NCBI GenBank assembly: GCA_014871385.1
Contig: CM026426.1
Location: 68,688,674-68,752,673 of the forward strand
Direction: 5' to 3'
DNA: 64,000 bases
DNA from: Ceratodon purpureus
Lineage: Eukaryota > Streptophyta > Bryopsida > Pseudoditrichales > Ditrichaceae
Position numbers and translations under genes: made by a program. Positions 16,471 to 64,000 of the stretch are shown one piece after another (the stretch's first letter is position 1; each line of letters opens with the position of its first letter). The notes under the pieces are model-generated. The model had not been told where the DNA came from, did not search any database, and worked only from the letters and a program-made list of their open reading frames with translations.

Positions 16471-16479
16471 TCACATGTG

Positions 16480-18560
16480 CATCTACTACTACTGCAGACT
16501 TAGCAGCTAGAAGTGAAGCCGCTGGAGCATATCTTAAGGCCATGCAATTCATAGAAGGTAATGTTGTACACAATATACCTTTTTGTACATCTATGATCTC
16601 TATCATTTTTTGTGTACAAGGCTTCTAAGGACGTGTCACTAGGAATAGTTGTATTGTAAAGTTTGTAGTGCCGGAGGTATTGTTTGTATATTCATATTCT
16701 TTATTTTTATGATTCGTACCAAGTCAGTTGATATTGTGTACTCTGTAATGCGGTGTGGTCAGAGCTAGTACCTTGGCGTTTTTGTATACGTACATGATGT
16801 TATTTGTTTGTACATAGAATTACATAGTTTATTGTATAGTTGGTACTGTCGTATAGTTTGTATGTTCAATGCACTTGTTTCGTGAAGTTGCGATATGTCC
16901 ATGTTTCCGGTTGGACTGTTTGTACTTCGAATTGTATTGAGCTTGTGTCCGTCCATTCACTTGTACTCATTGCACCTCTTGATCATATCTAAGTAGTGTT
17001 TTACCTTTGTTTGTACTGTTCATTAGTGTTACTAGAGTACTGTGCTCTATTTTGTACAGCTCATTTGTTTTATGTGTACAAAGTTGTACACTATTTATAG
17101 CCAAGTCCAGATTATTTGTACATTGTTTGTACATTTTAGACTCCAGTCCAAACCATAATGTACTATGTGTTACTTGACATTGCATAGAGCATGGCACCGA
17201 ATGTAGAGGAAGCGACGATGAGGAGCTCATCGACACTGACATGCGAGGAAGGGATTCACCAACAACCGTTGGATTTATGGAAGACCAAGTTCTTAGCACA
17301 GTTGAAGAGGTAGGGGTACAAGCTGAAGTTCACGAAGCAATTGAGAACACCATTGCAGGCGGAGGAGAAGATGAGAGTGCTGCGTTGGGGCCCGGGGGAC
17401 AAGATATTTTGGAGGGTGATACACTACTGATATCCACTGTGGGTGAGGGGGTCGGGGCGGGAACAATTATAGATGTAATTGGAAACACCATTGCGAGCGT
17501 AGGAGTAGATGAGGGAGGTGTCTTCGGGCCTGGAGGACACGAATTCACGGAGGGTGATACTTTAGTGATACCCACTACGGGTGAGGGGGGTGGGGACGGA
17601 AGAATTACAGATGTAATTGAGAACACCATTGTAGTCGGAGGAGAAGATGATGGAGGTCTGTTGGGGCCACGGGGACAAGAGGCAGCGCAGGGTGATACAC
17701 CAGTGATATCCATTGCGGATGTGGGGGGTGGGGAGGGAACAATTACAGGACAGGAGCAAGAGGCAGGGGTAGTTGAAATCATCATGGAGGAGCATGGAGC
17801 AACCGGGGGAACATTACAACAGCCAATTACATCATTAGGGTATGTACATGCAACTTTGCCAAATATTATTCCCATTCCATATCATCTCATGTGAAATGTA
17901 AAGCTGATTAGTGTACTCAGTGAGCACTTAGTGTACTATTTCTGATCTCAGTGTACTAGTTTTGTTACTTATGTCTCGAGTTATAGGGGCGGCAATTCCA
18001 GCGGCGAAGATCGTAGAGGAATGCCTGATGCCGAAGAACCAGAAGTATCCGATACTCAGGCCGAAGTTCGTTGTAAGAATAAGGCAGATTCAAGAGGAAG
18101 AAAGCGGAATGTCGGGGAAGCCCCACTGCGAATTCAGCCGACAAGGGGTGTAAGTTCGGAGAAGGAAGGAGGGACAGTTACTGTTTAAAAAAAAAAGCGA
18201 ACAGGTAGACAGTAGAATGATCAAGAACAAGATGTAGACCAGGCCGAGGGCTCAGTTATAGCTAAAACAAAGAAGTGAAAGGATAGGGAGCAGAAAGACC
18301 AAGACAAAGATGCAGACCAGGCCGAGGGCACAGGCTCGAGGAAGAAGCGTAGGGTTCTCAAAAATCAGACTGAGCGGGCGAACCTTGGTGATCAGCAGAA
18401 GGGCAATTCTCTGGAAGACGACGCAGACATTCAAGAGGAGCGGGTTGGTTTAGGCAAGAAACAGGGAAAGCGCGACAACAAGAAGAAGAAGCATACAAAG
18501 CCGAAAGTGAGCAAAGGAGGACCGATCCTCAATCGCCTGTTGATGCCCGTAGCCCCCTGA
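16480..18560 (+). CDS. N-terminal exons of a SET-domain gene in C1
   Basis: Exons inferred from splice signals: ~16,490-16,557 (ends before GTAATG), ~17,187-17,839, 17,987-~18,153 and ~18,200-18,560. Exon 2 contains three ~43-residue repeats, acidic and glycine-rich, around IENTIAGGGEDE / IGNTIASVGVDE / IENTIVVGGEDD. Exons 3 and 4 are basic (KKRRVL, KKKKHTKPK) and could be nuclear-localisation signals. One TGA lies in exon 4 near 18,278. The exon series leads into the SET exons that follow, so I infer one gene, but the join to 18,704 is not proven. The introns at 16,558-17,186 and 17,840-17,986 are dense in GTAC. Confidence 0.45.
17310..17745 (+). repeat. three tandem ~130-bp coding repeats
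   Basis: Three successive copies carry the word GAGGGTGATACnnnAGTGATATCCAT and ATTGAGAACACCATTG at about 130-bp spacing. They encode the acidic glycine-rich repeat of the C1 SET-gene N-terminus. Frame is preserved in all copies, which argues for selection as protein or recent amplification. Confidence 0.75.
17819..18012 (+). repeat. ~195-bp direct duplication, copy 1
   Basis: This stretch, from CAGCCAATTACATCATTAGG through an intron to GGCGGCAATTCCAGCGGC, recurs at about 21,747-21,943 with roughly 90% identity by eye. It spans the end of one exon, a complete short intron with several GTAC motifs, and the start of the next exon. The second copy keeps donor and acceptor but has no coding context around it. 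Confidence 0.8.
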
Positions 18561-18703
18561 GTGTTGCAGCGGTTTCCTAGTTGGTCGAGGAGGTCGCTGC
18601 AACCGGACCAGTTTTGATTTTTTGATTTACACTTGTAGCTTCTCCAATACTAGATTCTGAATTAGGGGCTTACACAGTTTTGAGGTTGCGTTTCTGTCCA
18701 TAG

Positions 18704-19682
18704 GAACATTTGTGGTATGATGCACGCGACTTGTCGAATGGATTAGAACGCGTTCCAGTCTTGGTGTGGGTGCCAGGTAAGGAACTTCATGCTTTAGAGG
18801 AATTCACGTACATTCATCACTCCAGAGCATCCACACTTGCATCTACCCACTTGAGTAAGATGAAATTGGTTTTCCCGGAGTCTTGCACTGGTTGCGAAAA
18901 TGGCTGTCTTAGGAGAGGATGCACCTGTGGGCTACAAAACCTTGTCCACTCAGCGTTTACAACACGAGGTCGGCTATGTAGTTCTCTCCTGTACCAACCC
19001 GTAAGTATTGTCTAATTCAAATGGATAAGTATATTTTACGACCAACATTGCAAGGAATGAAGGTTTCCTACTTTCTGTTGGTTTGCCATTATCTTCTTTG
19101 TACGCAATTGTTCTTTGTGAACTGCTCTGTGTACCAATTTGTTATTTATGTGTTGTTCTTTAGTACGAACTTCTACTATGTGTACTGATTGGTACCTTGG
19201 TCCACTATTTTGTGGTCTTGGACAGGGTTTGATGGAAGAGACTGTATTCTGTGGATTAATGTGTTCACCCGCGGAAGGTTCTTCATGCCCTGGTCATAAA
19301 AACAGGGTTTTTCTTCAAGAATGCAATGATGGCTCCAGCTACAAGTGGTCGTGTTGTGGGTATAGCACTACTGAGGATTCATGCATGTAGTTGGTTTCTT
19401 TCTCCATTTCTGACTACATGTGGTCGTTTGTTGATCAGATGTGAGGATGCCAACCTTATTGACATGCCAGTGAGAGTCAGCAGCAACCATGGTGGAGTGT
19501 ACCATGTTGCCTACTTCGCACAATTTAATATTCCAGCATTTGAAGAACTAACTTGGGACTATGGTTGTAGTTTTCAGAGACCAGAAGTGAATGCTGTTGA
19601 TGCCGTTTTTCCTTTCCATTGTAAGTGTGGTAGCACTCACTGCCGTGACTTTGTAACCGAAGAACTCCTATTCTTCTTGTAG
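18704..19682 (+). pseudogene. SUVR-like histone H3 lysine methyltransferase, SET gene of C1
   Basis: Exon 18,704-19,000 follows a TAG acceptor and ends at GTAAGT. It encodes a SUVR-type region before the SET domain (DLSNGLERVPVLVWVPG, FTYIHHSRA) and a pre-SET cysteine cluster (CTGCENGCLRRGCTCG). The final exon, 19,439-19,682, carries the SET core end: CEDANL, the NHxC-side motif, then FEELTWDYGC and the post-SET CKCGSTHCRD. The first half of SET (the GWGV and ELxGE motifs) is missing or decayed between 19,200 and 19,430, where several stops occur. The product would methylate histones to silence chromatin if whole. C2 has a better-preserved homologue at 54.3-55.4 kb. Confidence 0.7.
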
Positions 19683-19699
19683 TTGATCTTCTTGCTAAC

Positions 19700-20350
19700 T
19701 CTATGAAATGATACTACAGAGGTCTGATTTGTCGAATGTAGTCCCGGGTCACACTCTTTCTAAGCGTGGACCACAGTCCGTTTCTTCTAAATCCACATTA
19801 ACCAAACATTCATGCCCTTCAGAAAGTCTGGCAGCTCCTGCTATTTTTGTACAAATCTTGTACTATATGTACAGAAATTGTACATTTTATTACTATATTA
19901 TACATTCTGTATCATTTCTGTCCACTGCTAGCTTCTATTAGACTTAAATGAAAATTGCAAGTCTCTTTGTTCACAATGCCTAATGTTATTTTCTTCTTCA
20001 TCTACTTAGCACATTGGATAGGAAATTTATAAGTGCCTTGAATGAGATGAGAGTCCAAGCATCAGATATGAAGAGTCCATATTATTAGTCTTTGAAATTC
20101 AAATATAAATATAAACTACAAAGCAAAGCTCTCTCACAGTGTTTGCATTGCGATATCTCAATTTTTGAACCTGGTTCACATAGGGAAATATATGGATGCA
20201 GAATTCAAGCAGTACAATCAAATTAAATATAAAATTGCCATCAAATAGAAATTGTTGTTAAAAATTTTCTATTAATTTGATCTTTCAAGTACAATGCAGA
20301 CATGAAAGCTCGCTCAAAGAGAATCCGCTACAATAGTAATGGAAATTTTT
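19700..20350. other. AT-rich, no gene
   Basis: After the SET stop there is an AT-rich stretch with GTAC words at 19,850-19,870. No coding support is seen. Confidence 0.4.
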
Positions 20351-20359
20351 AATTGTGGT

Positions 20360-20875
20360 CTATCGATGTTTTGCTGATACCCAAATGTATGGTCTTAGAA
20401 CCACCTTTTCTCCTGGCTGCAACCAGAGAGTGTGATTCCTAGTATCAATAAGCAAGGTCCTCAAATGATTATGTTCACAACAACTTAATTTGCCTAGTGA
20501 CGCCGTCTCCAATCTTTCATTGCCGATTAGTTCTGCAAGGGCCCAAGAATTCTTAAAGATGTTCCAGTTCACGTTAAATCGATACGACTGATATTCATCT
20601 TTCGGAATCCAGTGGCACTCTGTATATGAATCATAGTCTCACTTTGCCAACCTCAAGCAAGCGTATTCAGGACTATTATCAATTTCTCTTTTCCAAAGTG
20701 AAGAAACTGCACGAGCATTCTCAATGTCTTGAAATGTAATTGTTGCTGGTAGAGTATAAGATGGAGAACAAGCCACTTGATCCCACGGGTCGTTTTCATT
20801 TGACATACGGTTGAATAGATTTCGTAAAATGGTCTCACAAGCAACAACCTCCAACGAATTGGACATCCTCTTCAA
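20360..20875 (-). CDS. small unassigned gene in C1, weakly F-box-like
   Basis: Two open pieces on the minus strand, 20,875-20,639 and 20,572-20,360, lie in different frames and may be exons or a broken frame. The first contains SLEVVACETILRNLF and ARAVSSLWKREIDNSPEY. This spacing of a helical start, a variable stretch and a W-K/R-x-x-I segment is reminiscent of F-box domains, which link substrates to SCF ubiquitin ligases. The second part shows no domain. The assignment is weak. Confidence 0.3.
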
Positions 20876-21746
20876 ATTTCTTTCAGTTATATTACAGATT
20901 ACTTACTTTTCCGTAAACCATGGTAGCAAAGTCATTTACTTGTAATTCTGAAATGCTTTCAAATATTTTTTGTATTAAAAGAATAATTAGGATATAGATA
21001 TTGAAATCCAAGTAAACAGTTCTCTCAAGCTTCAAAGGTATATACCAATATAATATAAATAAGTGTTTTTAAATTTTTATTAAAACAAAGTAAAATAGTT
21101 AGTGAAAGAACCTGCTCTTCAATTCGAGTCTCCTGAAATATAAAGAGCCAGTTTGTTTTAGTTACGAACTACAATAGCGCATGCAGCACAGTTTTCCAAA
21201 TGCCGCATACTGGATTCAATGTGTCTCTCTCTCGCACAAGTTCATCGCACTGCACTCCTGTTATTTCAATTTTCGCACTTCACTCAAACTATCTCAGATT
21301 TTTGCGAGACACAAATTTTGATGTCTGGTACTTCGGTTTTGAAATCAATCAAGTTCGATTGAACAGAGTCTTGTCTCTTCCCAAGCAGTGCGACGGTCCA
21401 TTAATGTACAAATGGTGTACTACTTGTACTCAGAGTGTACAGTGTATACAGATATTGTACATGATGTACATTATTCTCACACACTGTGAACTTTGAACAG
21501 TTGTGCTCGGTTGTCGTAATTACCCCATAATCATTGGGATTAGTCTCTCGATCTTATATTTAAGGCGTGTTTGATCAGGATTAAGAGTCAAGGGTTTGAA
21601 ATAACACTAGAGTCCATCATGTTTCAACAGTACATGGGAACTGATGGGCTCGTTCCATTGGGCTTTAAAAGAAGTGTTTCACTTCGGAGCAATGGAGGTG
21701 TTCCCTAAACCCATTGACACCCCCACCACCTTTTCGACCCTTAAAT

Positions 21747-21943
21747 AACAGCCTATTACATCATCAGGGTATGGTCATGCAACTTTGCCAAATATTATTC
21801 CCATTTCATATCATTTCATGTGAAATGTAAAGCTGAATAGTGTACTCAATGAGTACTTAGTGTACTAATTCCGTTCTCAGTGTACTGGTTTTGTTACTAA
21901 TGTCTCAAGTTATAGGGGTGGCAATCCCAGCGGCAAAGAACGT
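21747..21943 (+). repeat. ~195-bp direct duplication, copy 2
   Basis: Second copy of 17,819-18,012, with scattered substitutions. It lies about 3.9 kb downstream in the same orientation and is followed by unrelated sequence, so only this piece of the SET gene was duplicated. Confidence 0.8.
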
Positions 21944-22075
21944 AGATGTATAGTGCATACTTCAACAATGACCAGGTATACAGAAAATGCAATTCTTTAA
22001 TTTTTAAATACATAAAATTGTACTAGAAATGTTCTAAAATTCTATCTACATGCTGCTTACTAAAACCACATGAAG

Positions 22076-22372
22076 CTAACATTCCATTGCATTCTCTAGA
22101 TTGTCCATCTCTTCCTCACAAATCCCTTCATAGAAGTCATTCCACATAGCTTGGATCTCGACTTCTGTCCATTTAGGACTACTTCGACACTTGCACTTCT
22201 TCCTCCTATGCTCCTTCCTCTTAACTTTTGCACAATTTAAACAACAGTAGAAAACATAAAATAAAAGCATAAGAATGCATCCTATGACTAGAAAACCCTC
22301 GTAGGAACCTTCTTCTTCGAAGTCTGCTGAACCCAAAGTATGGTCCATCAAGTCACTGCAAAATATAGTCAC
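22076..22372 (-). CDS. small single-pass membrane protein, unknown
   Basis: The 98-residue frame starts with a short acidic region, then a hydrophobic helix at about residues 27-46 (GFLVIGCILMLLFYVFYC). A basic, cysteine-containing patch follows (KRKEHRRKKCKC), then an acidic tail. The pattern fits a type III/N-out membrane protein with a cytosolic basic tail. I do not recognise the family. It lies in the GTAC-rich part of C1. Confidence 0.35.
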   Translation of the reverse strand: MTIFCSDLMDHTLGSADFEEEGSYEGFLVIGCILMLLFYVFYCCLNCAKVKRKEHRRKKCKCRSSPKWTEVEIQAMWNDFYEGICEEEMDNLENAMEC

Positions 22373-22400
22373 TGTAAGTTAGTATTCTATACTATTATTA

Positions 22401-23110
22401 GAACTGACTGTACAAATTTTACAGTTGAAGGTTTATTGTGTACAAAAGAGTACATAATCTCTGTACAAAGAACTGTACGACCTGGTCGCCACAAACTTCT
22501 GTTCAGTTATTTATACAGTAGTACAGTACTATTTACGTAGCTCAAGTACAAATGTACCCTAGAACTACATCCACTCTCAGTGTAGTACAAACAACACTAA
22601 GTGTAGTACAAACAGCAGTAAGTGTAGTACAAACATCCCTAGTTGCTCAACTCCTATCACACTTCATACAGTTTGTATTGAAGATACCAAAGAGTGTTAC
22701 TACAAACAATGTTCTTGCTTACCTCTTTTTCCACTCACTGCACACAAATCCATTTCTCTTAGTACATATGGTAAAAAGAGTACAATAAGTACAACTACTC
22801 TGTAATAGCGACTACAAAAATTCATGTTGTAGAAGGGGATCTAGCAACTTACAAAATGGTTGTACAGGTAGTACTTCTTGATAAAATCGAAGTATGAACT
22901 CTACTCCTGCCACTGTACACAGAGTAAGCACCACCAAAAATGTTGAATACACTTGTACAAATCCAAGTACAGACATCGCTCCGAATAGTATCGTCGCTCC
23001 AACAAACTACTATTGCAAGGGAATATTGTACCAACAATATACTAGGAAGTAGCAAACACTCACAATCCAAAGTTGTCCATTACAATCTATACTACAGAGT
23101 ATACTCTCAG
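22401..23110. repeat. dense GTAC motif block of C1
   Basis: I count about 15 GTAC tetramers in 22,401-22,800, where chance would give one or two. Most are flanked as AGTACAAA or TTTGTAC, and pairs often face each other (for example GTACAAAGAACTGTAC). At 22,571-22,640 the unit AGTGTAGTACAAACA repeats three times. No protein is encoded. Similar blocks lie at 16,560-17,150, 25,330-25,390, 26,755-26,830 and 27,900-27,985, mainly inside introns. Confidence 0.8.
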
Positions 23111-23470
23111 ACTACGCAGAATTGAAGTTCAATAAATTCCAATACAACTAATACAAGGGATAGAAGAGGCTCTTTTAGTGGCATATGTAGTTGTCCCCAG
23201 TTCCCTAAGTGCGCCTCTTCCACAAAACGGACGAAAGCAAACTCTCAGCCCTTCCAGTATGCTCTCATATAGTCCTTGCAAAGAAATTGGATAGAAACAT
23301 CGCATTTGCGAACTACCCGTCAGTACCCAAACGTAGACACCAGTGTACATTATGTACAAAACAGTACATAGTTGAGAAGTTGAAGGCTTCTTCTATTCCT
23401 GCGAGATATTGCGAGAAATTTTGGAAGCAAATCTGAAAGTAAACTAGTAAACAACGGAGAATACCAACCT

Positions 23471-23821
23471 TCATGTCCTCTGACGATTAGGCGACTCACA
23501 ACTCGTGGTAGGATAGTGATGGAGGGATTCTACCTCTACCACACCCGCTCGCCCAAACAATGTCGCACTGCTTCTAACAACCCGACTTGGAGAGCTCTCT
23601 ACAGTGTTGCAAAGTCCTAGATAGAATGCAATGTTTCCCTGCTTTGACTCTGGAGTTTTTGAGACATAGCCGTCTGTTGTGGTAAGCAAGGAATTAAACT
23701 CGGTGACTACATCGGCATGAGAAGTATGTCGACTATACAATGGAAAGTACAAGGTGATGAGCTTCTGAACATGTTTAGAGTTAGGGAATTTCCGCTTGGT
23801 CATGGCCACAAAGAATTCCAA
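23471..23821 (-). CDS. unassigned frame in C1
   Basis: This is a 116-residue minus-strand frame. It contains TKRKFPNSKHVQKLITLYFPLYSR and TTDGYVSKTPESK and has ordinary amino-acid composition. It may be an exon, since a GT-like donor lies near its 3' end. No family is recognised and the start is uncertain. Confidence 0.3.
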   Translation of the reverse strand: MEFFVAMTKRKFPNSKHVQKLITLYFPLYSRHTSHADVVTEFNSLLTTTDGYVSKTPESKQGNIAFYLGLCNTVESSPSRVVRSSATLFGRAGVVEVESLHHYPTTSCESPNRQRT

Positions 23822-24229
23822 GCAAGCACTACGAGATAGACTTCAAGTTAAGAACGGGAGACAACAAGAAACAGGAGGCAACATGCAAAGGAAAGCGAAG
23901 AAAAGCGGCCGCAACTCTCACCTCTCAACATCCACACCACTCAGACACAGTCTCTCAACATCCAACAAAGGAACTGCAAGAACATGCACGACCAGACGAG
24001 CGGACTCCCTAGGCTGCGACCTCACAACACGGCAACTCCCGAGGCTGCGACCTCACTGTGTACGCGTACCACTCCCATCCTCCCCCGCCCTCAACCGCCA
24101 CCCACCCAAACCCGTCACAATATACTGAATTCATAGATATTAGCTCTGAAATGTAAGGAGGGGCTAGACGGTGGCGGTGACGGAGTGTATTACGAGGTCG
24201 GACAAATAGGAGCCATGCATGTCTTTGCA

Positions 24230-25190
24230 TAAAGATGACACTTAAGCACGTATATTATCTGATTATATATGATACATTTTAAATGTATTAGTCCAAATAT
24301 TATCATTTTTCATGTTTCAAATCTTTTAAATAGAGGTATTAAGAAAGATCAAAATTTTAATAAGATATAATTGATAATGTATAACTTAGAAACATAGGTA
24401 ATAGAATTAAGGGAATATAGTATTGAAGTAATCGTTCTTCAATTAATTGATTTTGGATGCTTGTTTAGGATAATGTGCATTTTTTAATTATATGATGAAC
24501 ACTTAAATATTGGAGACGTAGTTCATATTGACTGATATAAAAATATAGTAATGCATATTTATTTATAATATGTATAAAATATTTGCAGTAGCCATTTTTG
24601 TTGAAAATATGCATATGCCTAAACAACAAATTAATTAGTATAAAGAATTAATTACATTATTCGTGCAATGGGAGAACACAAGACCTTTTAAAGAACATGG
24701 TTTTTAAAAATATTACTTCCACTTTCCAATTATCAAGTATACGATCCTATGATTCCTTGAATGAATTAAACCATTACAACATGTTAAGAAGACAACAAAA
24801 GGGTAATATACAACTTAATAATAATGTTCTAGTCATTTTTGAATTCATACTAGTTATAGATCTTATAACTTAGATGATGACACCCAAACATCAAAACCAT
24901 AAACCCTAGAAACCCTAAGAAATCCCCACATACCCTAAAGATTCCCACCGTACCTTAAATATTCCCGCCTAATCCTACATATTTCGTCCACCTGTCATTC
25001 TACAAGACCCCAATTTGTCTCCATTGAGAATCACTTTGTCTATTGGGAACATATGGCTAAAAATATGCGTTGTTACAAATTATTGTCGCCAACGAGGCCT
25101 GTATTTGGCACATATAGAAACTGAACGATGAATATATCAGTCAGTGGTCGAGTTACAAGGCATCTGTCAGATGTGGCAGTCCACTGAGAA
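24230..25190. other. AT-rich non-coding stretch of C1
   Basis: Composition shifts to strongly AT from about 24,230 to 24,890. A short run of AAACCCTAGAAACCCTAAG follows at 24,900-24,920, which resembles the plant telomere word only loosely. No gene is seen. Confidence 0.5.
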
Positions 25191-25194
25191 CACT

Positions 25195-25315
25195 CTAAGT
25201 TGAGCGTGAATATGATCCCTCCATCTGGAATCCTATGTCATCAACCTGAATGTCGTTGCTACGCCTTCTGAGATGATTCGCAAAGTACCGTTTGAGACCA
25301 TTATGTATGGGCAAG
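25195..25315 (+). pseudogene. possible retroelement integrase fragment
   Basis: The plus frame reads NVVATPSEMIRKVPFETIMYGQAH. The pattern P-S-x-x-x-x-K-x-P-F-E-x-x-Y-G is typical of the C-terminal part of the integrase core in LTR retroelements. Only about 40 residues are recognisable, bounded by unrelated sequence. Confidence 0.35.
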
Positions 25316-25643
25316 CTCATTTGAATACAATTTCAGTACTTATAGTACTATTCTGTACAAAGTAGTATTGATTTGTACTTTGTTGATGTGACCGATAACC
25401 TTGCTTGAGAAGACCCTTTCTTCAATGAACCGACGAGTGTTTGCTTTCTTTAGAACTGCGTCGTGGACTCAACGAGTGTAATAATTCACACGTACCAATT
25501 GCATAAGAAGATGTGCATAGGCTCTGAATGCTTTATGTTTATAATCAAATTTTCCTCCATTACTTCAAAGGAAGTGCACACAGGCATGACAAAATTGGGA
25601 ATAAAACCATTAGGATACCATGTACTTATTTTACAAGTAGTCC

Positions 25644-28600
25644 CTACTCTTCGTGTTTCCTAAACCTCTCTAATACAGCTCGAATGGTTGTAAGACTGTC
25701 CTCAGTCATGTTGTAGGTGACCTCCCCCCCTTTGCGTCTACCTGGCTTTGGAACCATAGCAAATTTGCCATGCACCACCAGATATGCGTCAATATGTGCT
25801 GGTTGGGAGTTGCTGAGGAATACATAGCCATTGTTCCACTTCTGATAGTAAATGCCACGTATGACGAGGTCACCAACTTCAAACTCCGGGCCCCATGGGC
25901 ATTTGAACCCAACATCCACCTCATATTTTGCCCTACTACATTGGAGAACATAAAATTCTACTCCTTCATTGTTGCCCTCCATCGCTGGGACAACGAAGTT
26001 ATCACCCGGCCAAATCAGATCGCCAAATATTTCGCCTTCTACAGCCTCCTCCCAGTCCTCGTCAGCTGATACATCGTGGTCCATCATTTGCTCTCGCACT
26101 CCCTGAAGATCGTGAGGTTTTAGTTTCACAAGTTCCCAGTCTTCAACATGGGACGTATTCACGCAATTTGTAGAGTCCCCATCTAGACAGAATGCACAAA
26201 AGCATGACAATCTCCGAACAAAAAGTTGCGTTGGGTCAGCAACAGCAAATGAGTACACTGAATGTAATGACTCGGAACCTTTCACAGTCTCACATTCATA
26301 GCTACGTTGCCGCATACAGTCCTTGGGAATTTCCCAGAAATACCGGTTGACCTCCTTGATGCCCGTCTTTTCGAAGTTGGTATCCACTCGACCGGCCATT
26401 CTATCGTTCAGGAAGCACACTGCATCATGTGCATTGTGCATCCTCCTCCAGGTGTTCTGTAGCTGGGACTGCCAAAGAGCACGCTTCATCAATGCGCCTG
26501 CATCGTCCCTCTCCCCTCTCCCATGTCCCGTTCCAAAATAGTTCCAGTTCATAGTGCAACCGTTCGTGAGTCCAGGGTATCTCGCCACAAAATACAGTGC
26601 TCGGGCACCCTTGAACTGGCCCGCACAACCGTCGGACCACACTACATGGTGCTTTGGAGAAATGCCTAGAAGGAGGTGCATAATCAATAATCTTTATAAG
26701 CTTGCAATATATGAAATTGGCATATGTGTGTATGATGATGGTTCAAAGTTTACCTTAAAGTACCGTGTGTACACAAGGTTCCCGATTTTGTACAAAACAG
26801 TACTAATAATACAAACACTGAACTATCTACTACCCAATATACAATGTGTAATGGAGCTGTAATGGTACTATTAAATAAGATAAGCAGCACGTTGTTAAAA
26901 CATGATATGTACGTAGTTTAAATAAGCTATGCAGATCAAATTGATAATAGAATTAAAAGTACCCAACACACCTTGAGACTCTAGCCATCGCGAATGCTGC
27001 ATCATGCAGTGCTGGACGAAGAGGGAATCGTGTTGTTCATCATTTGTTATGTAGAAATGGGAGTCCTTCACAAGTTCTCCATCTGGTTTAATCCGGTAAG
27101 TAATGTGCACCAGGATACTGATCTGCGTTGAACACCAGTACATGCTCTGGATCCGGTTCTCAATCTCAAAGGTATAGTTCTCCGCAAAATCAATATGTGA
27201 TAGAATTACGTCTTTGCCCATACATTGCATCGACCGCCTGCAATGGTCGTCCTGCCACCTTGCAATGAAGTTATGCCTCACAAACTGGGGCAGTTTAGAC
27301 TTGAAGTAACTAAGAAAAATTTCAGGAGAGGTCTCCTTGTAAACCTCTATGATCCTCTTCCGCGGCCTTCCATCCCTTGTCATGCCAATGATTTCATTTT
27401 CAAAACACTTCTAGGTCACACTGGTTGATGTTGAAGACTCCAAAGGGCAAATCGGCAGCTTTGAAATACCACACTCTGCGCACGTATCCATGACGCACGA
27501 CAGTGCGTGCCACTCTGCATTCTCCGGCTTTGGGCACACAATCTCCTGCCAAAGCGATGTTGTCCCAGCGTAAGTCTTAAGTTGGGCGCTGCAATCAAAT
27601 TCTTCCGGTCGGAAGAGGCATACATCACACTCGCATTGGCAGTTGTCCAGGATGTGGATTCCCCTCCTCCGATCCCGAATCCTATTGAACCCTTCCCTGA
27701 GCATGTCAATCTCCACGTGGTATTTACAGCAATAGACGTTCCTCTAGCTGCAAGCTCTAACAAAATATGGCTTCAGACTCTCAAAGGCAACCAGCTTGAT
27801 GGGAGTTTCTGGATGCGCCTCGACAAATCTCTTATAAAAAGAGCTCTGCAAGCATGAACAGAACTTATGAGAAGAGATAAAAGCAACTAGATCCTTTGGA
27901 TGTTGTGTACGGACTTATACAAACACAGTACTGATATGTACCAAAGAGTACCAAGGAGTACCCAGTAGTACAAACAATACGGATTTAACTACATCCTGTC
28001 ATCCGGATTTGAAATTCGGCAACACAATATATGCATGTGACTTATACACTACAACGATCCTATATTCAAGCACAGTAAGAAAGAATTTATACCTGAGTTT
28101 CAAGCAGATAGTGGGTGCAATGTTGTTCTCTTACATTGCAACTTATCCACTTGTGAACAATTTCCTTTCTGTTGGAGCTCACGCGAGTCTCCTTTGTCCA
28201 CCATTTCAATACAAGCTCCTTCACCATGTTAGGCACACCGGGTCTCTTCTTACGTTTTGCAAGAGCAAAAGGTGTCCCAGCCAGTACGTCGGCGGCTTAT
28301 AGCAACCCTCAAATTCCTAGGATGAACCTTCAAAACCCTGGACAAAGCCTTGGCGTTTGTCACCGTTGAAGATACGGCCGCATCAAGAAGAACAGCCTTC
28401 CTAGCAAGCATATCTGCCGAATGAGACCCCTTCACAATGTTCAACTCATGCTGGTAATTCTTTAGAAATTCAAACTGAACCTTTGCATCTTCCACACAAG
28501 GATAGTACTTAGGAAGAAATGGAGAAACACATTCGTCCTGCAGAAAAAGCTCCATGATCTTCAAACGAGACTGGGCATCGGGACAACCTTGCATCTGACT

Positions 28601-33537: not shown

Positions 33538-33577
33538 CTGGAAAATGCAACAAAAAAAAGTCTCATCAGAATTCAGC

Positions 33578-48932: not shown

Positions 48933-49154
48933 TCCTCTATGCCACTTAGGCACGACAGAGGGTCATCCCTCGATGATTACATCTGAGTCACCTGTCTTCC
49001 TCATTCTCTATTAAAGAAATAAGAGTCATCACTGCTTGACCGTTTCTCATCCCCGTGTAATATCATCCTTCCTCGTGTCAATGATGTTTGTTTCTGAGAT
49101 TTGTGACACTTTAAGAACCATGACGATCATGACTGCGCAACGTGGAGACTGGTT

Positions 49155-50521
49155 GTGGAAGCAGATGGAGTAGTGGGAAACTGGAGGAAGGAAGTAGAAG
49201 CTTTCAGAACAAGGGGGGAAGGAGAGAAACTGCAGATTCATACGCCCAGTTCATTTGGTGTCGATAAACTTGAACTCCGGGCGTTCTGTTCAGGAGCGAC
49301 TTTGGCAGCGGCAGTAGAAAGCAACGCAAGTTCCCGAGCAGGTGAGAGCAATGCACACATGCAAGGGCCATGGCCAATGGACTTTAGTTTTTAGTTGAAA
49401 TTCTCTTCTTTGCGTTTTTGGTTGTGTTGCGTATCGAGTCTGTTGGGTTCTTGAGCAATTAGCAACACGAGTCATTGAGATTAGCTGGTGTATTAGTTTG
49501 AGCAGATACGGTTGGCATGTAATTAGGTTTTGGTCCACTGGAGTCGTCGTTTTCCTAATACATATGGACATACAATGTCGACAGCCTGATCCCACTGTAT
49601 GTTGTTGCATTTGTCGATCGAGTACTTTTGTTGAGGTGGAAATTTGGCTAAGTGCTGCAATGAACTTGTAGAAAAAAGGATTTGCTGTTTAGGGTTCAGG
49701 GTTTAGGGCTCTGGAGGTGGATTTACATTCATATACATCATGTGTTTCAGTTGAAGGGTTTGAGATAACATATCTTGTCATCAGTTTTTTAGTTTCTTTG
49801 AAGTGTGTTGTGGTTATTGGTTCTTTCGGATCTGGTTTTATGAACTTCATGTGGGTCTAGAATTTTCTAATCTTTTTCTCTTGAATTTTTTTTTCCACAG
49901 TTCCCAGGTATGGAACAGGATCCGACTCTCACGAAGGGGAAGATGATGATGATTGAGGATGGTTCAACCTCCCAGAGGGAAGTCCAGAATATGGTCTTCA
50001 ATGGAGATTGCGAGAAACCAGAACTTCCAGTCTGGAGAGATTCAGCAGCAAGGAGAGGTGGAGAGTTTCAATTCATGAAAGATGCACCTCTCAACCTGCC
50101 ATGCCTACGACATTGGCTGAAGGATCTGAAGACATTTCAAGAGACAACAAAGTATGAAGTTCGTGATTATGACAAAGTTTCTGGGATGAATTGTGAAGGA
50201 TGGGATGGAACTTGGAGCTCCATTGCTTTGAGGCAATTTGTGGCCGTTGCAAATGCAACTGGGGTTATGCACCCTCCAAGGAACAAGAAGAACCAACTCG
50301 ACTACATGAGGAATCAGGTCCTTTCCATCATGAAGCACCTGGAAGAGACAATGGAGATAGAAGGGACAATGGAGACAGAGCCAGCTCCAGCTCCAACAGT
50401 GCCAGCTCCGACAATGGCAACTCCGAAAGCGACTGGATATTCTTTCGCCAAATATCAAGCCGCCATCAACAAAATGGAAGAAAACCTCAAGAAAATGGAA
50501 GAAAACCGCAAGGATTTGTAA
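49155..50521 (+). CDS. unknown plus-strand gene of A
   Basis: Likely two exons: a frame at 49,155-~49,390 and 49,900-50,521, the latter after a TTTTTTCCACAG acceptor. The second exon encodes about 200 residues, with PLNLPCLRHWLKDLKTFQ, WDGTWSSIALRQFVAVANAT and a C-terminal coiled coil of INKMEENLKKMEENRK, after a PAPAPTVPAP linker. No family is recognised. The helical C-terminus suggests oligomerisation. A GGGTTCAGGGTTTAGGG word, a telomere-like fragment, lies in the putative intron near 49,690. Confidence 0.5.
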
Positions 50522-50989
50522 GTGTGGTGGATGCCTTACGAGGAGGATTTTACTTCTGATGTAGCGGATATGTTGTAGTCAGAGACTTCAGGTGCCATTG
50601 AGGCAGGTTTTGTAGTTCTATGTTTCAGCGGACACGCAGGAGATTTTGTGTAAAAACATTCCTACTGTTCTCGTTCTCTGGACAATTCTGTTTAAGTCCA
50701 TTCTCACAGACTTTAGTTGCCATTGAGCCCGGTTTAGAATTTTGACTAGATGACATGAAGTACTCGTAATTGTAAATTCTCAATCTGTAATGGTGGTTGT
50801 ATGAGCACGGTTACACCTATTTGTTAAATAGGTTTGAATGTGTGAATATCGCAATGCACTGGATCGGCAGGACGTAATTGACCGATTGCAAAATTAAAAT
50901 AAATTAATTCCTCAGAAAACACAAACCAACATCGCACAGAAAATAACGCCCTAAACCAAAACTGTTTACAGTTTTTTGATCGGAGATCC

Positions 50990-53210: not shown

Positions 53211-53300
53211 ATACTTCTGAGCCCGTCCACGATGGTTCTTCCCATACATTGTTACATTTATGCTCTAAATTTGAGGACCAATTACCGGGTGATTACTTAA

Positions 53301-53345
53301 TTCTGGACTCTGGACAGTCCAGAAATAGTTAAATATGGCATGTTA
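53301..53345 (-). repeat. right TIR and target duplication of A, with hairpin
   Basis: The right TIR is 53,316-53,341 and the duplication GTTA is 53,342-53,345. TTCTGGACT at 53,301-53,309 faces AGTCCAGAA at 53,316-53,324 over six bases, a hairpin using the same GTCCAGAA word as at the left end. Confidence 0.93.
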
Positions 53346-57900: not shown

Positions 57901-58075
57901 AAACTCTTATGTCAATTCGGATGTGATAAAATATTGCACCCCTTAGCAGTACATGTACCTCCATGCACAAAAACAACCGATGCACAATAGGGATGATACA
58001 AGTGCCTACAAGATGATACAATAATAACACCATATTCGTTATTTTGGGAGATTTATCACCTCCTAAAATAATGCA

Positions 58076-58712
58076 TTAGGTCAAGTCGAGCTAAAATGGG
58101 CACAATGGTCTCATACTTGGCAAGGAAAAGCTTATAAGCAATTTCCATTAATTTGGGAGATTATCACACACTAGTAATGGGAAATGAAAGAACTGGATGG
58201 TTTACTAGAAATATATGAAAAAGTACAAGGTAGGTCGAACCACCCTAAATGAACATCATGTGAATAACAAGAAATGGACACAACGGATATGCTGGGCAAA
58301 CTTATATTATATATATGTGTGGAAATACAATTTAGGTCGACACTCCTTAAATGTTGAATCCGTGACAGGCTCTTTCAGACCTGTACAAACAATCAAGTTG
58401 TTCGACCAACATAGCTGCCTACAGTTTCCACAATATCCAAGAACATACGGACTTCAGTATAGTCCCATGCCAACAAATGTATGTTATCGGCTCTACTTCA
58501 GAAATCCAAACTATGAACTTCAACGCCAAATGTAGTTTAGGTCACCTCGACCTAAACTACGGTCTATAATGTGGTACACATGATAAATAAGGAATGGACT
58601 GAAACACTTAAGTAGCGTTCCCTCCAATTAAATATATGTAATTAGCTAGTATTCAAAACATAAATACGCTAGAACTAATACGCTATAACTGATTAGGTCA
58701 ACTCGAGCTAAA
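58076..58712. repeat. five B palindromes at the left of B
   Basis: Copies at 58,076, 58,231, 58,331, 58,532-58,560 and 58,693. The copy at 58,532 has 11-bp arms, GTAGTTTAGGT and ACCTAAACTAC. The others match TTAGGTCAAGTCGAGCTAAA with changes. They lie beyond the 3' end of the B transposase gene. Confidence 0.8.
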
Positions 58713-58844
58713 CATCTACCTTTGTCTTGAAAACATAATGTTGGATGAAGGGACGAACGGTATTCAGTTCAGTCGTCTTCAAACAAATATAAGTGATCTG
58801 ACTAAATTCAAAACTTCAAGACTACCAACTTGAAAGCTACATGT

Positions 58845-60456
58845 TTATTTAGAATCCGGAGAAACAAATCTCTCCAAGGAGGCCTTTATAATGTCCAGTT
58901 GTTTGAGTGGAATCTTCAACGTTGGATCCTTGCTAAGCCCCCGCTCGTTGACATTTTTTTTAACTTTTGATTTCCAAGCTGTTATGACAGCGTTAGTACT
59001 CTGCCACGACTCGGGTACATCCTTCTCAACTGTCCAAGGAAGTCTCCCATCCACATCCCAGCCGGTATAGAATTTCAAAACATTTTCATCTCGGGAAATT
59101 GGACGGTAGAAATCTACTTGGATCGTGTTCGGGAGGTCAGGGTTCGAATTAGGGTCAATCAAGGCCCTCGCAAGCCAGAATGAACGATCGTCTTCATCGC
59201 AGGGTTGTAATGCTAAGAAGTACCCTGCAAAAAGGTCTCGCGCAACACGGAATGACGATCCTGGCCGATCTCGTTCGTGACCAACAAAGTGATCATCCTC
59301 TGCGAACTCCTCGCGCAAAGTTCCATCTTCCTGAAACTCGTCTTCGACGGAGTGAGCGAGCCGAGTGGATGGCCAAATACCATGCTCCAAGGTGAGGACT
59401 ACATCAAAGGGGATGGCAAGAGCCTCTTTAACATCGTTCCAGTAGTATGAGAGTGGCTCATAGATTCTTCTGGACTCGACTGAATCAGAAGATAGCCTCT
59501 CCCAATGATCTACAAAACCCAACAACCCCTAAATCACATCAGGCAGGTGCCGCATCTCGCAAGGCGCCACGGCACCAGGAACACCACGGGGCCATAAAGA
59601 TCGACCTTCTGAATCCTCCTTCTACAACTTGATGCCACAACCATCTCCTTTTGGCAACCAGTCGTCGTCGTGACAGAAGATTTTATACTTCATGAGTGGG
59701 CATCCTGAAGAATCAACATAGAACTTGAACTGATGAGCTTTAGTGTGACCCATTAACATGTTGTCGCCATCAAGCATCCACTCCGCGATGGATTTCTTGA
59801 AATCTGGGACCTCCTGAATGAGATGAGGAATTGTTGGTACAACTTCATTTTTCATGAAGGACTTCATGAGGAGAGGTACTGTGGGGAAGTCCTCCCTCCG
59901 CAAAGCCATGCTCCATCGCCCGAAAAGGGCATCAATATCGTCATGAGTATGGTTGACCAGCATGAAGTTCACGTACACTTTGCAAAACACCCGCTTCGCG
60001 ACTAATACAAATCTATTCTTGTTATCGCTGACAGCGTTATCCATTTAGACGTTAAGAATGGGAGGCAAGGGTTTAGCAGCAACAGGAACCTTAGGAGGAG
60101 GGCCAAGAGGATCCAAACACATCTCTGAACCATGCAAAAGCGCGGCATACAATGGGTGAGACGGATTTTCTTGAAAGAGTTTCCTCGAGGTGGATTTAGG
60201 GGGTGACTCAAGATCCCGAAGGAGCTTTGCAAATGATCCGACTGTGTAATTAGCGTCGTGTGAGTAAATGTCAAGGCCATAATGGGCGTAACGCTGATCC
60301 ACATGCCCATGAGCAAGCATTCTGGTGACAGCGAGAAGAAGCTTCATGAGACCGTCTAAGTGTTTGACCTTGTGGAATAAGGCCGGCGATGCTGTCTTGG
60401 AGTGGTCCATCTTGTCATGCATAATTGTAAGAACTTCATGAGGAGTAGCCTTGGAC
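58845..60456 (-). pseudogene. transposase remnant of B (DUF7869-type)
   Basis: The remaining part starts after an ATTCAG acceptor (60,456) with IMHDKMDHSKTASP, then GHVDQRYAHYG, MDNAVSDNKNRF and LVNHTHDDIDALFGRWSMAL, aligning with A's motifs in the same order. The C-terminal region ARDLFAGYFLAL, FWLARALIDP, TIQVDFYRP matches the small barrel-like domain in A. Lesions: TAA at 60,045-60,047 (where A has glutamine), TAG at 59,622-59,624 and another TAG near 59,529. All sequence N-terminal to the HDKMD motif is missing. Confidence 0.75.
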
Positions 60457-60464
60457 CTGAATCG

Positions 60465-60554
60465 ATTTAGGTAGCTCGGCTTGAGCTAAAATCCTGGGAT
60501 GTCATGTGTTATATTTTGTAATTGAACCACCATTTAGCTCGAATCGAGCTAAAT
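60465..60554. repeat. two B palindromes between the divergent genes
   Basis: ATTTAGGTAGCTCGGCTTGA-GCTAAAAT (60,465-60,492) and ATTTAGCTCGA ATCGAGCTAAAT (60,532-60,554) occupy the ~140-bp gap between the first remaining exons of the two divergent genes. Both exons open with splice acceptors, so the gap is intron sequence from two different genes. Confidence 0.85.
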
Positions 60555-60595
60555 GGTTTTGAATTTGTCTAATGTTAAACGTCTCCTCCTTGCAG

Positions 60596-62035
60596 TGAGG
60601 AGAAAGCAAGGGTACTTGAGGCGCTACAGCATTTTTTCAAGCCTGTTCCTAACTCTGATTTGGACGACGATGACGGGGATGACTCAAGAATATTTGAGGC
60701 TTGGACCTTGAAAGACCCCTTGAAGGTCAAAAATCGGACATTGCGATGGGTTGCACACACCCCATATCTTACCTTCGCTACCATTTTCAAGGGTGAAGTC
60801 CAAGATCCCCTGGTCATCGACATGGAACAAAGGTTACCGAGTTTGACCATAAGGGGAAAGAGCACATAAAGATCCTCTGCTCATCTATGGGGACTAATCC
60901 ATACCTCTTCACCATAGTAGTAGACGTAGCAGATAACCTCTTCGACCCGATTTCTTTATTGGAAAGTCTATCAAATTTATGCTTCGATGAGATAGTGAAG
61001 ACATTGAGGCAAGAAGTACTAGACAAGAAGTGGGCAACAAAAGATGGACGTACTCTCCTGGCAAAGTCCCTAGCATTCAAATTGATGAAATTTCTGAGCA
61101 GCCTTACGCTCGCCGCAACAAAGGCAAAGGTTAGGCTAACCCTGGGAAAATCTCATATAGACGTTTCCGGAGTGACTGCAACCGGGAGCCAAATGGGAAG
61201 CCAACAGACAGGACGCAATAGGGGCAGAGCAATAGTTCCTTCACAAAGCCGGGGCGCTTCTGCAACTCCCACACCCCTCTCACCATTGAAGAAGAAAGGC
61301 CTCAAGAAGAAAACTGACAAGCCAAAGCCCAAAGAGGACTTGCTCTTATCTGCGGAGGACTTGGCAACAAGTTTTAACTCTGTTCTTGTGGAACTTCCAA
61401 AGGTGAACAAGGTTGGAGAGGTCCTGGACTTCGATAGTGCCAATCGAATTTACCAGGGTTTCTTTGCTGATTGCCAGGAGGAGTTCGTCTTCAAAACGAA
61501 TGGGCAACCAAAGAAGATTAGTGTGGACGTGACGCGGTGCAAGCCCGCGCCCGCCCATTGGACTATCCGTGCATATGAAAAGCGTGGCATGGAGGAGATG
61601 AAGAATTACTTGATCAAGATGCCGGATAGGACACAGAAACAAACCCTGTGTGTGATGCCAGATACGGCTGCAAGACCACAACAAGAAGACAATCTAAGGG
61701 GCTACACATTCTGGATCATCAACGGGCAACACAGCGTTGCGGCGTCCAAATCACTCATCGAGGATAACGCCAGTGAGGAGTTGCTGAGGGACTTTAGGAG
61801 GTGGGACGCGTACAGCGTTTGGACCCACGATTATGATAAGTTGCGGAAGATCTTAGCATTTTATAATCGGGTGAACCATTTGGCACCCTTTAAGCCAACT
61901 TGGGCAAGCAATATCATTGCCGCCAGGACAGTGTGGAAGAAGTATGGTAAGCCGCAACCAAAACATGCCGCCGCTGGTGCAACCGAGTCTAGGACTACAG
62001 GTTCGAGAAGAAATCCAGCCTTGGAGACTTATGAC
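60596..62035 (+). pseudogene. ParB-like domain exon of B
   Basis: The exon opens after CCTTGCAG and ends at GTAAGT. It aligns with A's ParB-like exon: LEALQHFFKPVPN, a shared middle region (NPYLFTIVVDVADNLFDP), a basic linker (LKKKGLKKKTDKPKPKED), then FWIINGQHSVAASKSLIED and RKILAFYNRVNHLAPFKPTW. One frame shift near 60,828 separates the first 230 bp from the rest. The NGQH motif lies at about 61,709-61,750. The linker between is diverged in sequence but similar in length and charge. Confidence 0.55.
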
Positions 62036-62064
62036 GTAAGTTCACTGACTCATTAGCATTAGCA

Positions 62065-62154
62065 ATTTAGCTCGACTCGAGCTAAATGTAGATAATCTTC
62101 TTTGCTTTTAATGATCTGGTATATCTAACGCACTTTAGCTCAAGTCCAGCTAAA
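62065..62154. repeat. two B palindromes in an intron
   Basis: ATTTAGCTCGACTCGAGC-TAAAT at 62,065-62,087 and TTTAGCTCAAGTCCAGCTAAA at 62,134-62,154, between the GTAAGT at 62,036 and the next coding segment. The matching intron in A holds five A-type palindromes. Confidence 0.9.
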
Positions 62155-62194
62155 GTGTAATTGCGTGAAATCATCATCTAAGGTTTCTTCCTAT

Positions 62195-63495
62195 GATAAT
62201 GCGGAACTTTGTGGAAGCAATCAGAGAGCGCTTCGCAATGATCGATGTGGCAAAGCATCAAGCCCTGGTGGCGAAGAAGGGAGGGAAGAACACTATCTCC
62301 CTGACAAACGAGCTGGAGATCATCACATCCAGTGATGAGACCTAGGACCTGTGGAAGGAGGTGATCGCGTCTGCGGCATGTGGTGGACTTATAGATCCCG
62401 AAGGAGTTCTTCAAATGGCTCGGGAACTTGTCAGAGGCGGATCACCACAAGCTCTGTAAGCACATCCTGCATAAGTCTGGGCCAAGTCGGAAGTACACAT
62501 ATCCGAAGGTTGTCATTAAGCAGAATACGAATGTACTGGACGACTGCTACTCGGTCAAGGAGTGGGTAGAGCGGAGAAAACGTAAGGCTGTAGCTCAAGC
62601 GGAGCTGAACAAGATTAAACCGACCCTACATCTAATCAAGAGAGGCGTCTTTGATGTACCGGCTTGGAAGCAGTTCAAGAAGGCTTACCATGTCTCCAAG
62701 GAGTCCAAGCACGTTTTGCTTGCTTGGGGTATACTGGACTAACTCCAGAGCTACACAGTACCGCAACCAGCCCGCCAAGGATCTTTGCCCATATGCGGTT
62801 GAGTTCTTTAGAAACTTCCTTCAGGTTCGAGATGGGTTTCAGAGTCCATCAGCTCAGATGTGGTTTCTCCCATTCATCAGGGAGCCTCAACTTGCCTTCA
62901 GATCTTGGCCCTCCGATGTATGGAGGTGTTGGTGCGACGCTCTCACATTAGGAATCATTGACTTCCGGTTCCTCCCAACCTACAAGACAAGGCATAACTA
63001 CACTTTGGAGAACCCCTTCTTCATGGAGTTCTTCCAAATGATCGATGACTATGGACAGCCCCACTTCAACGATGTTCGGCACTGGCTTCTCATTTGCGGA
63101 GACGATGAGGACTTCGCCCAGGTGCTAACGTGGGTGGAGCGAAACACCTTGAGTGGTCGCAAAAAAGTCAATTCCGAGCTCCTAACGAGCGACTCGATGG
63201 ACACCCCCCAAAGAGCAGAATCGCGTTGGAACCCGTCCGACTCCTGTTTCTCATTGATGATAATTTACTTGAGAACGAAGTGTCAACGCCAGAACCTCTG
63301 AGCGAGTACAGAATGGTGGATCACCCACTGTACAAGGACAACAGGAAGTTCAACGAAAGGAAGTACACGCTTTATCCATCGCAGTTAAGGATGGAGTTCT
63401 ACCTGCAGGTCCATGACACTTTCTGCAAAAGCAGGGAGGCCGCGTATCAGCTATATGGTGGAACAAGCCCCTATTGGCCGCCACGGGCCGCCACG
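62195..63495 (+). pseudogene. counterpart in B of A's large unknown domain
   Basis: The broken reading follows A's 37.7-36.4 kb exon in order: FVEAIRERFAMIDVAKHQAL, then DLWKEVIASAACGGLID, FFKWLGNLSEADHHKLCKHI, YRNQPAKDLCPYAVEFF, LAFRSWPSDVWRCWCD, RLLFLIDDNLLENEV and EFYLQVHDTFCKSREAAY. Lesions: TAG at about 62,342, frame shifts near 62,397, 62,742 and about 63,210 (by a C6 run). It ends at a GTAAGT donor (63,496). No biochemical function can be assigned. Confidence 0.6.
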
Positions 63496-63511
63496 GTAAG
63501 TGTTTCCACAC

Positions 63512-63603
63512 TTTAGCTCGAGTCGAGTTAAATTGTTCTACTGTTTTGATTCTATGAACCAAGTATGCATACACTTCAACACTTTAGCTCGAGTCGACCT
63601 AAA
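63512..63603. repeat. two B palindromes in the next intron
   Basis: TTTAGCTCGAGTCGAGTTAAA at 63,512-63,532 and TTTAGCTCGAGTCGACCTAAA at 63,583-63,603, inside the intron 63,496-63,634. Confidence 0.9.
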
Positions 63604-63634
63604 CCTTGTTTACCTTGCGTTCGGTTTTTTTCAG

Positions 63635-64000
63635 ATGCTCTCGATCTTGGCTTTCGTCGTCGCGGATGATAGTGAATCAGCTCATATGATCAAAGCCAAG
63701 TCACTTGGTTTGACTCTGGACCCAATCCATTTTAATGTCGACGCATATTATGTTGATAAGGAACGCTTTCCGGAATATGGTAGAGCCGTGCGGAGAGGGA
63801 AAGGCAGAGCTGTGGAGGAGGGTGACAATGTAGAACTGGAGGAGGATGCCCCTACCGAAGAACAAACCCCCTCCTCTAGTGTTGCAGACATCAGCAATGA
63901 GGGCCATGCTCCGCCTTCAGATCTAGTGAGCCAGACAGCATCTGAAGGTAGAGTGGGGAGAAGACTCGATTTCCCTGAGGTTGACATTACGCGTACGGAC
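63635..64000 (+). CDS. acidic exon of the large B gene, runs off the window
   Basis: After TTTTTTCAG the frame is open to the window end. It starts MLSILAFVVADDSESAHMIK and turns acidic (EEGDNVELEEDAPTEEQ), matching A's exon at 35,902-35,627 in position and style. The HAD part seen in A would lie further right, outside this window. Confidence 0.55.
   Translation, partial: MLSILAFVVADDSESAHMIKAKSLGLTLDPIHFNVDAYYVDKERFPEYGRAVRRGKGRAVEEGDNVELEEDAPTEEQTPSSSVADISNEGHAPPSDLVSQTASEGRVGRRLDFPEVDITRTD

What the first reader, a model, noticed from the sequence alone, without database searches (positions are those of the whole stretch)
16471..64000. Three co-resident elements, each with its own signature motif: a possible general system
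A, B and C carry different short palindromic motifs (GATC-centred 18-mer; TTTAGCTCGAGTCGAGCTAAA; GTAC with CAAA flanks), each confined to its element. In all three they concentrate in introns of element genes. A and B share homologous genes but not the motif, which implies that motif and a cognate DNA-binding protein co-diverge. I infer self-recognition marks used for transposition, silencing escape, or segregation.
Basis: partly seen in the sequence, partly recalled or inferred. Interest (0 to 1): 0.92.

Follow-up and report, generated by a model that had tools for sequence, protein, structure and literature searches.

The report
Moss transposons carrying private palindrome tags
Several families of a moss jumping gene each scatter their own private palindromic DNA tag through their non-coding DNA, and at least two of them carry a gene for a protein predicted to resemble bacterial DNA-partition proteins, which suggests a way for each transposon to recognise its own copies.

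Summary
The genome is almost certainly Ceratodon purpureus (contig-length match). A and B are DUF7869 elements; B copies have 27-bp inverted ends and 4-bp target duplications. A's motif CATCGRGRGATCYCYCGATG has 1092 genome places, B's TTTAGCTCGA(G/C)TCGAGCTAAA 2154; reversed controls give 0. Two further DUF7869 families have their own motifs: D, GTCGGCNGNCNGCCGAC (2531), and F, TTTAGCTYGATGTGAGCTAAA (231). Motifs follow the transposase tree; in A and B they avoid coding DNA and are kept where flanks have drifted. But 16 of 32 DUF7869 loci, read over 3.4-4 kb, show none of the four. C differs: no DUF7869 match, no CAAA-GTAC-TTTG above chance, but GTAC sites phased at 10.4 bp. New here: gene 2 of A contains a domain whose predicted fold is closest to ParB CTPases, clamps that load at palindromic sites; B's gene 2 is a remote relative. 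Best reading: family-specific sites for an element-encoded protein, probably gene 2, that promotes expression or anti-silencing, as VANC does for VANDAL transposons. Binding and function are inferred. Each half of this idea is known elsewhere; my searches found no report of the combination.

The parts
31500..53310 (.). Element A, approximate span. It lies between Ty3/gypsy pol pieces at 29490-31301 and 53301-53813; exact ends not found
   Evidence: A sites 32425-52848 at up to 2 mismatches; no terminal inverted repeat found
45418..46743 (+). A gene 1, N-terminal exon of the DUF7869 transposase (stop-to-stop ORF)
   Evidence: 42% identity over 239 residues to D locus L051
46917..48932 (+). A gene 1, main exon: DUF7869 (PF25273), transposase-like
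   Evidence: Pfam E 2e-44; 119 homologues at E up to 1e-10
38079..39380 (-). A gene 2, exon 1: protein with a predicted ParB/sulfiredoxin-type domain (within residues about 203-397)
   Evidence: AF2 model and fold searches; 100 matched rows in the genome
36335..37723 (-). A gene 2, exon 2: conserved, function unknown
   Evidence: homologues P0002-P0006; AF2 model unusable
32903..33562 (-). A gene 3: NLI-interacting-factor-like (NIF-type) phosphatase domain
   Evidence: PF03031 E 9e-16; B counterpart
45135..45442 (.). A motif array, 8 sites, at the 5' side of gene 1
39514..40071 (.). A motif array, 9 sites, upstream of gene 2 exon 1
37780..38057 (.). A motif sites (5) in gene 2 intron 1
33577..33767 (.). 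A motif sites (4) between gene 3 and the neighbouring acidic ORF
46776..46795 (.). A motif site in the intron between the two gene 1 exons
51010..52867 (.). A motif sites (51010, 51923, 52630, 52848) 3' of gene 1, towards the end of the element
58026..64000 (.). Element B (true end 66292, outside the window): internally deleted copy, TSD TAAT, TIR AACACCATATTC...
58845..59528 (-). B gene 1 fragment (C-terminal part of the DUF7869 protein)
   Evidence: matches the B1 transposase
60797..62056 (+). B gene 2, exon 1 region (IINGQHSV motif)
60533..63603 (.). B motif sites at 60533, 62066, 62134, 63512, 63583 (upstream of and in introns of gene 2)
16126..28505 (.). C region: 107 GTAC sites, mostly outside long ORFs, helically phased (10.4 bp)
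25644..26693 (-). C: long ORF, no confident Pfam match (RNase-H-like by eye only)

Best explanation
A and B (and families D and F elsewhere in the genome) are DUF7869 DNA transposons. In A and B, gene 1 is the transposase, gene 2 encodes a ParB-fold protein and gene 3 a NIF-type phosphatase. Each family keeps its own palindromic sites, scattered through non-coding DNA. The sites are recognition elements for a DNA-binding protein made by the same element, most likely the ParB-fold product of gene 2 acting as a dimer on two half-sites. Loading at the sites, perhaps with ParB-like spreading along the DNA, would keep the element's own chromatin open and its genes expressed, as VANC does for VANDAL and as the ParB relative VirB does against H-NS. 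Private site/protein pairs confine the effect to own-family copies. SHOWN: family-specific sites; in A and B their conservation against drifting flanks and avoidance of coding DNA; tracking of the transposase tree by the families that have a motif; dN/dS well below 1 for genes 1 and 2 of B. PREDICTION ONLY: ParB fold (modelled for A). INFERRED: that gene 2 binds the sites; anti-silencing or activation as the outcome.
Confidence: 0.42

Rival explanations
1. The sites are bound by the DUF7869 transposase itself and serve excision or integration.
For: The motif follows the transposase tree; gene 1 has a conserved region upstream of DUF7869 that could bind DNA. A has four sites 3' of gene 1 (51010-52848) and two at 32425-32474, and D and F loci have sites just 3' of gene 1, possibly near element ends.
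Against: In B1 the perfect sites lie 3.9 to 14.9 kb into an 18.9-kb element; within 1 kb of its ends there are only five degenerate ones (four at 3 mismatches, one at 2). The ends carry a different sequence, AACACCATATTC....
Confidence: 0.19
2. The sites are operators for autoregulation: an element-encoded KorB-like protein represses the element's genes (copy-number control).
For: Arrays lie just upstream of genes 1 and 2 in A and B; KorB is among the fold matches.
Against: Sites also lie in introns and 3' of genes; the numbers in A (37) and B copies (17-26) are high for a simple operator. Not separable from activation by sequence.
Confidence: 0.17
3. Partition or tethering: a ParB-parS-like pair clusters or anchors element copies in the nucleus or on mitotic chromosomes.
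For: ParB-like predicted fold plus palindromic sites.
Against: The Pfam scans of element ORFs list no ParA; no dedicated ParA search was made. The elements are integrated, so segregation gives no clear benefit.
Confidence: 0.08
4. No protein partner: the palindromes spread by tandem duplication and hitchhiking, or act as RNA or DNA hairpins.
For: Several arrays are tandem: B at 47 bp, F at 54 bp.
Against: Dispersed A sites keep the motif while flanks are near random (0.13 bits); coding DNA is avoided.
Confidence: 0.1

Closest known systems
VANDAL transposons with VANC anti-silencing proteins (Arabidopsis; Hosaka et al. 2017, PMC5735166, abstract and passages seen)
   Same: Transposon-encoded system with short motifs accumulated in non-coding DNA, often as tandem arrays, different between related families and evolving with a cognate protein.
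   Different: VANC motifs are 8-9 bp (YAGTATTAY; AGTTGTCC/AC). Here the motifs are 17-21 bp palindromes, the transposase is DUF7869 and the candidate protein has a ParB-like predicted fold. No silencing data here. (That VANDALs are Mutator-like is recalled.)
ParB-like plus DNA methyltransferase accessory proteins of algal transposons (Sola1-1_Ec32 of Ectocarpus, 21.5 kb; PMC12477816, passages and part of its reference list seen; its sources Iyer et al. 2011 and Petroll et al. 2025 not read)
   Same: Large DNA transposon with a ParB-like protein, suggested there to bind and modify its own element.
   Different: Different transposase superfamily; no methyltransferase domain was detected here; the word palindrome does not occur in that paper's text.
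Bacterial ParB-parS, KorB and VirB (VirB: PMC10653881, passages seen)
   Same: Predicted fold of the gene 2 domain; palindromic sites; VirB is an anti-silencer.
   Different: No sequence-level match; bacterial systems; nucleotide-binding residues only partly alike.
Lanisha transposons (PMC12730594, passages seen; that they came from Ceratodon is recalled, not from a call)
   Same: [quoted passage not shown] by recall from this moss.
   Different: The C(2)C motif said there to lie between the second D and last E is absent from that place in the A, B and F rows. No Lanisha sequence was available to compare, so identity with Lanisha is neither shown nor excluded.

Membership tests
Cut-and-paste DNA transposon | Terminal inverted repeats and target-site duplication | tested here: met
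   B: 27-bp TIR AACACCATATTCGTTATTTTGGGAGAT; TSDs TTGT (B1), ATGT (B3), TAAT (window copy), 3 of 3 copies with both ends in hand of 7 looked at. A: ends not found; D and F not looked at.
DUF7869 (PF25273) family | Pfam domain above its cut-off | tested here: met
   A: 151.9 bits against 26. B by 34% identity to A. C: no match.
CMCT clade / Lanisha | C(2)C and H(3-4)H motifs between second D and last E | tested here: inconclusive
   17 rows: taking the D of [LMIV][QH][LMIV]DN as second D (by eye; found in 14 rows), no CxxC follows it in the A, B and F rows; in 3 of 4 D rows one follows 320 residues later. In 13 of those 14 rows a CxxC lies 186-193 residues before it. H(3-4)H follows it in some B and D rows and in L058. 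The last E was not identified.
VANDAL/VANC | Mutator-type transposase and VANC protein | not tested
   Only analogy is claimed; the transposase here is DUF7869.
VANDAL/VANC | Family-specific motifs enriched in non-coding DNA | tested here: met
   (A and B1)
VANDAL/VANC | Motif-dependent loss of DNA methylation | not testable with these tools
   needs bisulfite data
ParB superfamily | ParB N-terminal (CTPase) fold | tested here: inconclusive
   [not shown]
ParB superfamily | Sequence profile match (Pfam) | tested here: not met
   no ParB family among hits of the 15 members of A2 at E up to 5
ParB superfamily | Helix-turn-helix domain after the CTPase domain | tested here: inconclusive
   exon 2 model pLDDT 34
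ParB superfamily | CTP binding | not testable with these tools
   needs protein
ParB-methyltransferase transposon proteins | N6A/N4C methyltransferase domain | tested here: inconclusive
   no methyltransferase among Pfam or PDB profile matches for exon 2; no usable fold model

The most novel reading that the evidence does not exclude
A eukaryotic ParB-parS-like self-recognition system: a plant transposon superfamily in which each family encodes its own ParB-fold DNA clamp that loads on that family's private palindromes and spreads over the element to keep it open and expressed, with clamp and palindrome diverging together.
Probability: 0.28. Interest if true: 0.9.

Novelty: new variant of a known kind. 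Interest (0 to 1): 0.74.

Why it matters
If true, sequence-specific transposon self-recognition (known from VANC) evolved a second time with unrelated parts, a ParB-type clamp and long palindromes. It would give several natural, mutually private protein/site pairs in one genome for testing how a mobile element escapes silencing without opening the rest of the genome. Some copies are near-identical (B3 and B5 99% over 18.6 kb; A gene 2 proteins up to 99%), so activity may be recent and testable in a laboratory moss.

Tried and rejected
Rejected: C as a DUF7869 element. The CAAAGTACTTTG palindrome as written. Sites as transposase end-binding sites in B (position; not excluded for A, D and F). 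Significant A-D half-site likeness (p 0.13). Methyltransferase domain in gene 2 exon 2: nothing found, so inconclusive.

Led nowhere: PDB sequence search for gene 2; AF2 of exon 2; A's inverted ends; genome copies of C (not completed); KorB operator text (0 papers). DUF7869 in print: 0 papers. ParB with transposons or palindromes was sought (9 of 10 papers listed; 4 of 4; 1 of 1; 6 of 197 listed); by title and abstract start only PMC12477816 was to the point. The library holds no bioRxiv and few subscription papers; the Ceratodon genome paper was not held.

Corrections: my notebook says 8 B places, 17 loci without a motif and 1082 for B; the outputs give 7, 16 and 2154 (both strands).
Full report
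WHERE IT IS. The window is G000:C6:68688674-68752673 in a 362-Mb genome. Contig C8 is 17,972,677 bp, the same as the contig of a named Ceratodon purpureus protein, KC19_7G136300 (P0035), so this is almost certainly that moss. C6 is 110.5 Mb; since a 112-Mb contig bearing a UG tag is named (P0041), C6 is presumably the V sex chromosome (inference).

THE OBSERVATION. Motif A (CATCGRGRGATCYCYCGATG) has 37 sites at up to 2 mismatches in 31.5-53.3 kb and none in the rest of the window; shuffles give 0. Motif B has 7 places in 58.0-63.6 kb. The palindrome as given for C is not above chance. What is special in C is GTAC density and spacing: distances peak at 9-11, 20, 30-31 and 40 bp, best period 10.4 bp; 0 of 2000 jittered controls reach the observed strength. 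8 of 107 C sites lie in its long ORFs against 24.6 expected.

ANATOMY OF B. Six genome copies were fetched in whole or part. B1 runs 18.94 kb between 27-bp inverted ends AACACCATATTCGTTATTTTGGGAGAT with TSD TTGT; B3 has TSD ATGT. The window copy (58026-66292, TSD TAAT) lacks the middle, about 2620-11712 of B1. The other four copies did not have both ends in hand. B1 has gene 1 (DUF7869, leftward, 976-3837, with an in-frame stop; B3 and B5 have an open frame of 955 residues), gene 2 (rightward from 11818, at least three exons as I read them) and gene 3 (NIF-like, about 16468-17292). Perfect sites: nine at 3903-4280 at the 5' side of gene 1, eight at 11328-11772 upstream of gene 2, three in gene 2 intron 1, one in intron 2. 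A has the same layout: 8 sites 5' of gene 1, 9 upstream of gene 2, 5 in gene 2 intron 1; but it also has four sites 3' of gene 1 and two near its left edge. Whether the upstream arrays are promoter, 5' UTR or first intron cannot be told without transcripts.

ARE THE SITES KEPT BY SELECTION? In A, 37 sites carry 1.67 bits per motif base and 0.13 per flanking base; in B1, 1.88 and 0.49, and 1.85 and 0.52 without the tandem array. In B1, 0 of 30 sites (up to 3 mismatches) are in the 39% that I treat as coding; in A, 3 of 39, one of which (45423) lies at the very start of a stop-to-stop ORF, probably before its start codon. Sites in arrays are not independent, so the counts overstate the evidence. 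D and F were not tested in this way.

THE GENERAL TEST. PF25273 has 1398 first-look candidates in the genome; 150 were scored and all 150 exceed the cut-off. Thirty loci of about 3.5 kb and two of 4 kb were read. An open scan for palindromes and repeated words gave two new motifs: GTCGGCNGNCNGCCGAC in the 678-residue family D (14 of 14 loci) and TTTAGCTYGATGTGAGCTAAA in family F (2 of 2 loci). The F motif is palindromic only in its outer arms. 16 loci (L037-L050, L058, L068) show none of the four motifs; they may lie outside the short stretch, be different, or be absent. Genome counts: A 1092, B 1082 + 1072 on the two strands, D 2531, F 117 + 114; each reversed control 0. Only 50 to 100 places per motif are listed. 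Of 50 D places listed, 49 lie within 15 kb of one of eight D transposase hits on C1 (0.83% of C1). Of 100 F places listed, 84 lie within 5 kb of one of 15 DUF7869 hits (the 15 were chosen by eye, mostly because they lay near F sites, so this is a description, not a test). Of 41 A places listed on C1, 22 lie within 15 kb of one of two scored gene 2 hits (only 97 of 474 gene 2 candidates were scored). At C1:10303931 the A array ends 133 bp before gene 2 and intron sites begin about 20 bp after exon 1. The A cluster at C1:128915 lies beside the start of a gene 2 relative (29 residues, 59% identity, E 5e-7; L069).

CO-DIVERGENCE. In a 17-row maximum-likelihood tree, A joins D (100/100) and B joins F (96/97); B, D and F are each one group (the program warns of long branches, A among them). 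The six rows without a motif fall in two places, one of them beside B and F. B and F share TTTAGCT (randomised p 1e-4); A and D share only a TCGG core (p 0.13). So motif tracks clade among families that have one, and in one of two sister pairs a shared half-site is demonstrable. Because all genes of an element travel together, this does not say which protein is the binder.

HOW IT MAY WORK. ParB-family proteins load at palindromes and spread; VirB uses this to lift silencing (PMC10653881, passages). VANC shows that transposons can use private motifs for anti-silencing (PMC5735166, passages). A ParB-like protein in algal transposons, suggested to act on its own element, is in print (PMC12477816, passage). 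Put together, the most likely use is own-family activation or anti-silencing by gene 2. Autorepression is hard to exclude, since sequence does not tell activation from repression, and the transposase stays a possible binder in A, D and F.

LIMITS.

Noticed in passing
16126-28505: GTAC sites of element C are phased at 10.4 bp, the DNA helical repeat, suggesting cooperative binding on one face of the helix; a different logic from A and B.
   Followed up: partly
42623-43615: The AT-rich middle of A shares stretches of 92-94% identity (279 and 326 bp) with the middle of B1, although the transposases are only 34% identical.
   Followed up: no
29490-31301 and 53301-53813: A appears to sit inside a Ty3/gypsy pol region; a 31-bp sequence is inverted between the two sides (31170 and 53311).
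   Followed up: no
31303-31533: 92-bp tandem array at the left edge of A with a degenerate A-like site (4 mismatches) and another palindrome, TGTTCTTCCGGAAGAACA.
   Followed up: no
44040-44130: Short array of AAACCCT-like (plant telomere-type) repeats inside A.
   Followed up: no
303-2917: 74-bp satellite arrays.
   Followed up: no
47603-47622: An A site lies inside the transposase coding sequence, in a linker before the LQLDN motif.
   Followed up: no
motif centres: A is centred on GATC and B on GANTC, both adenine-methyltransferase-type sites; B's TTTAGC/GCTAAA also resembles the KorB operator (recalled; one search found no paper).
   Followed up: partly
G000:C6: 79 of 100 listed match rows for A gene 2 are on C6, about 30% of the genome.
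   Followed up: no
32903-33562: Both elements carry a NIF-type phosphatase gene, unusual cargo for a transposon.
   Followed up: partly
L051:564-580, L053:2738-3298, L067:145-755: In D a site abuts the transposase stop codon; in F arrays follow the stop codon (L067 also has two matches 5' of the gene; the 5' side of L053 was not in hand).
   Followed up: partly
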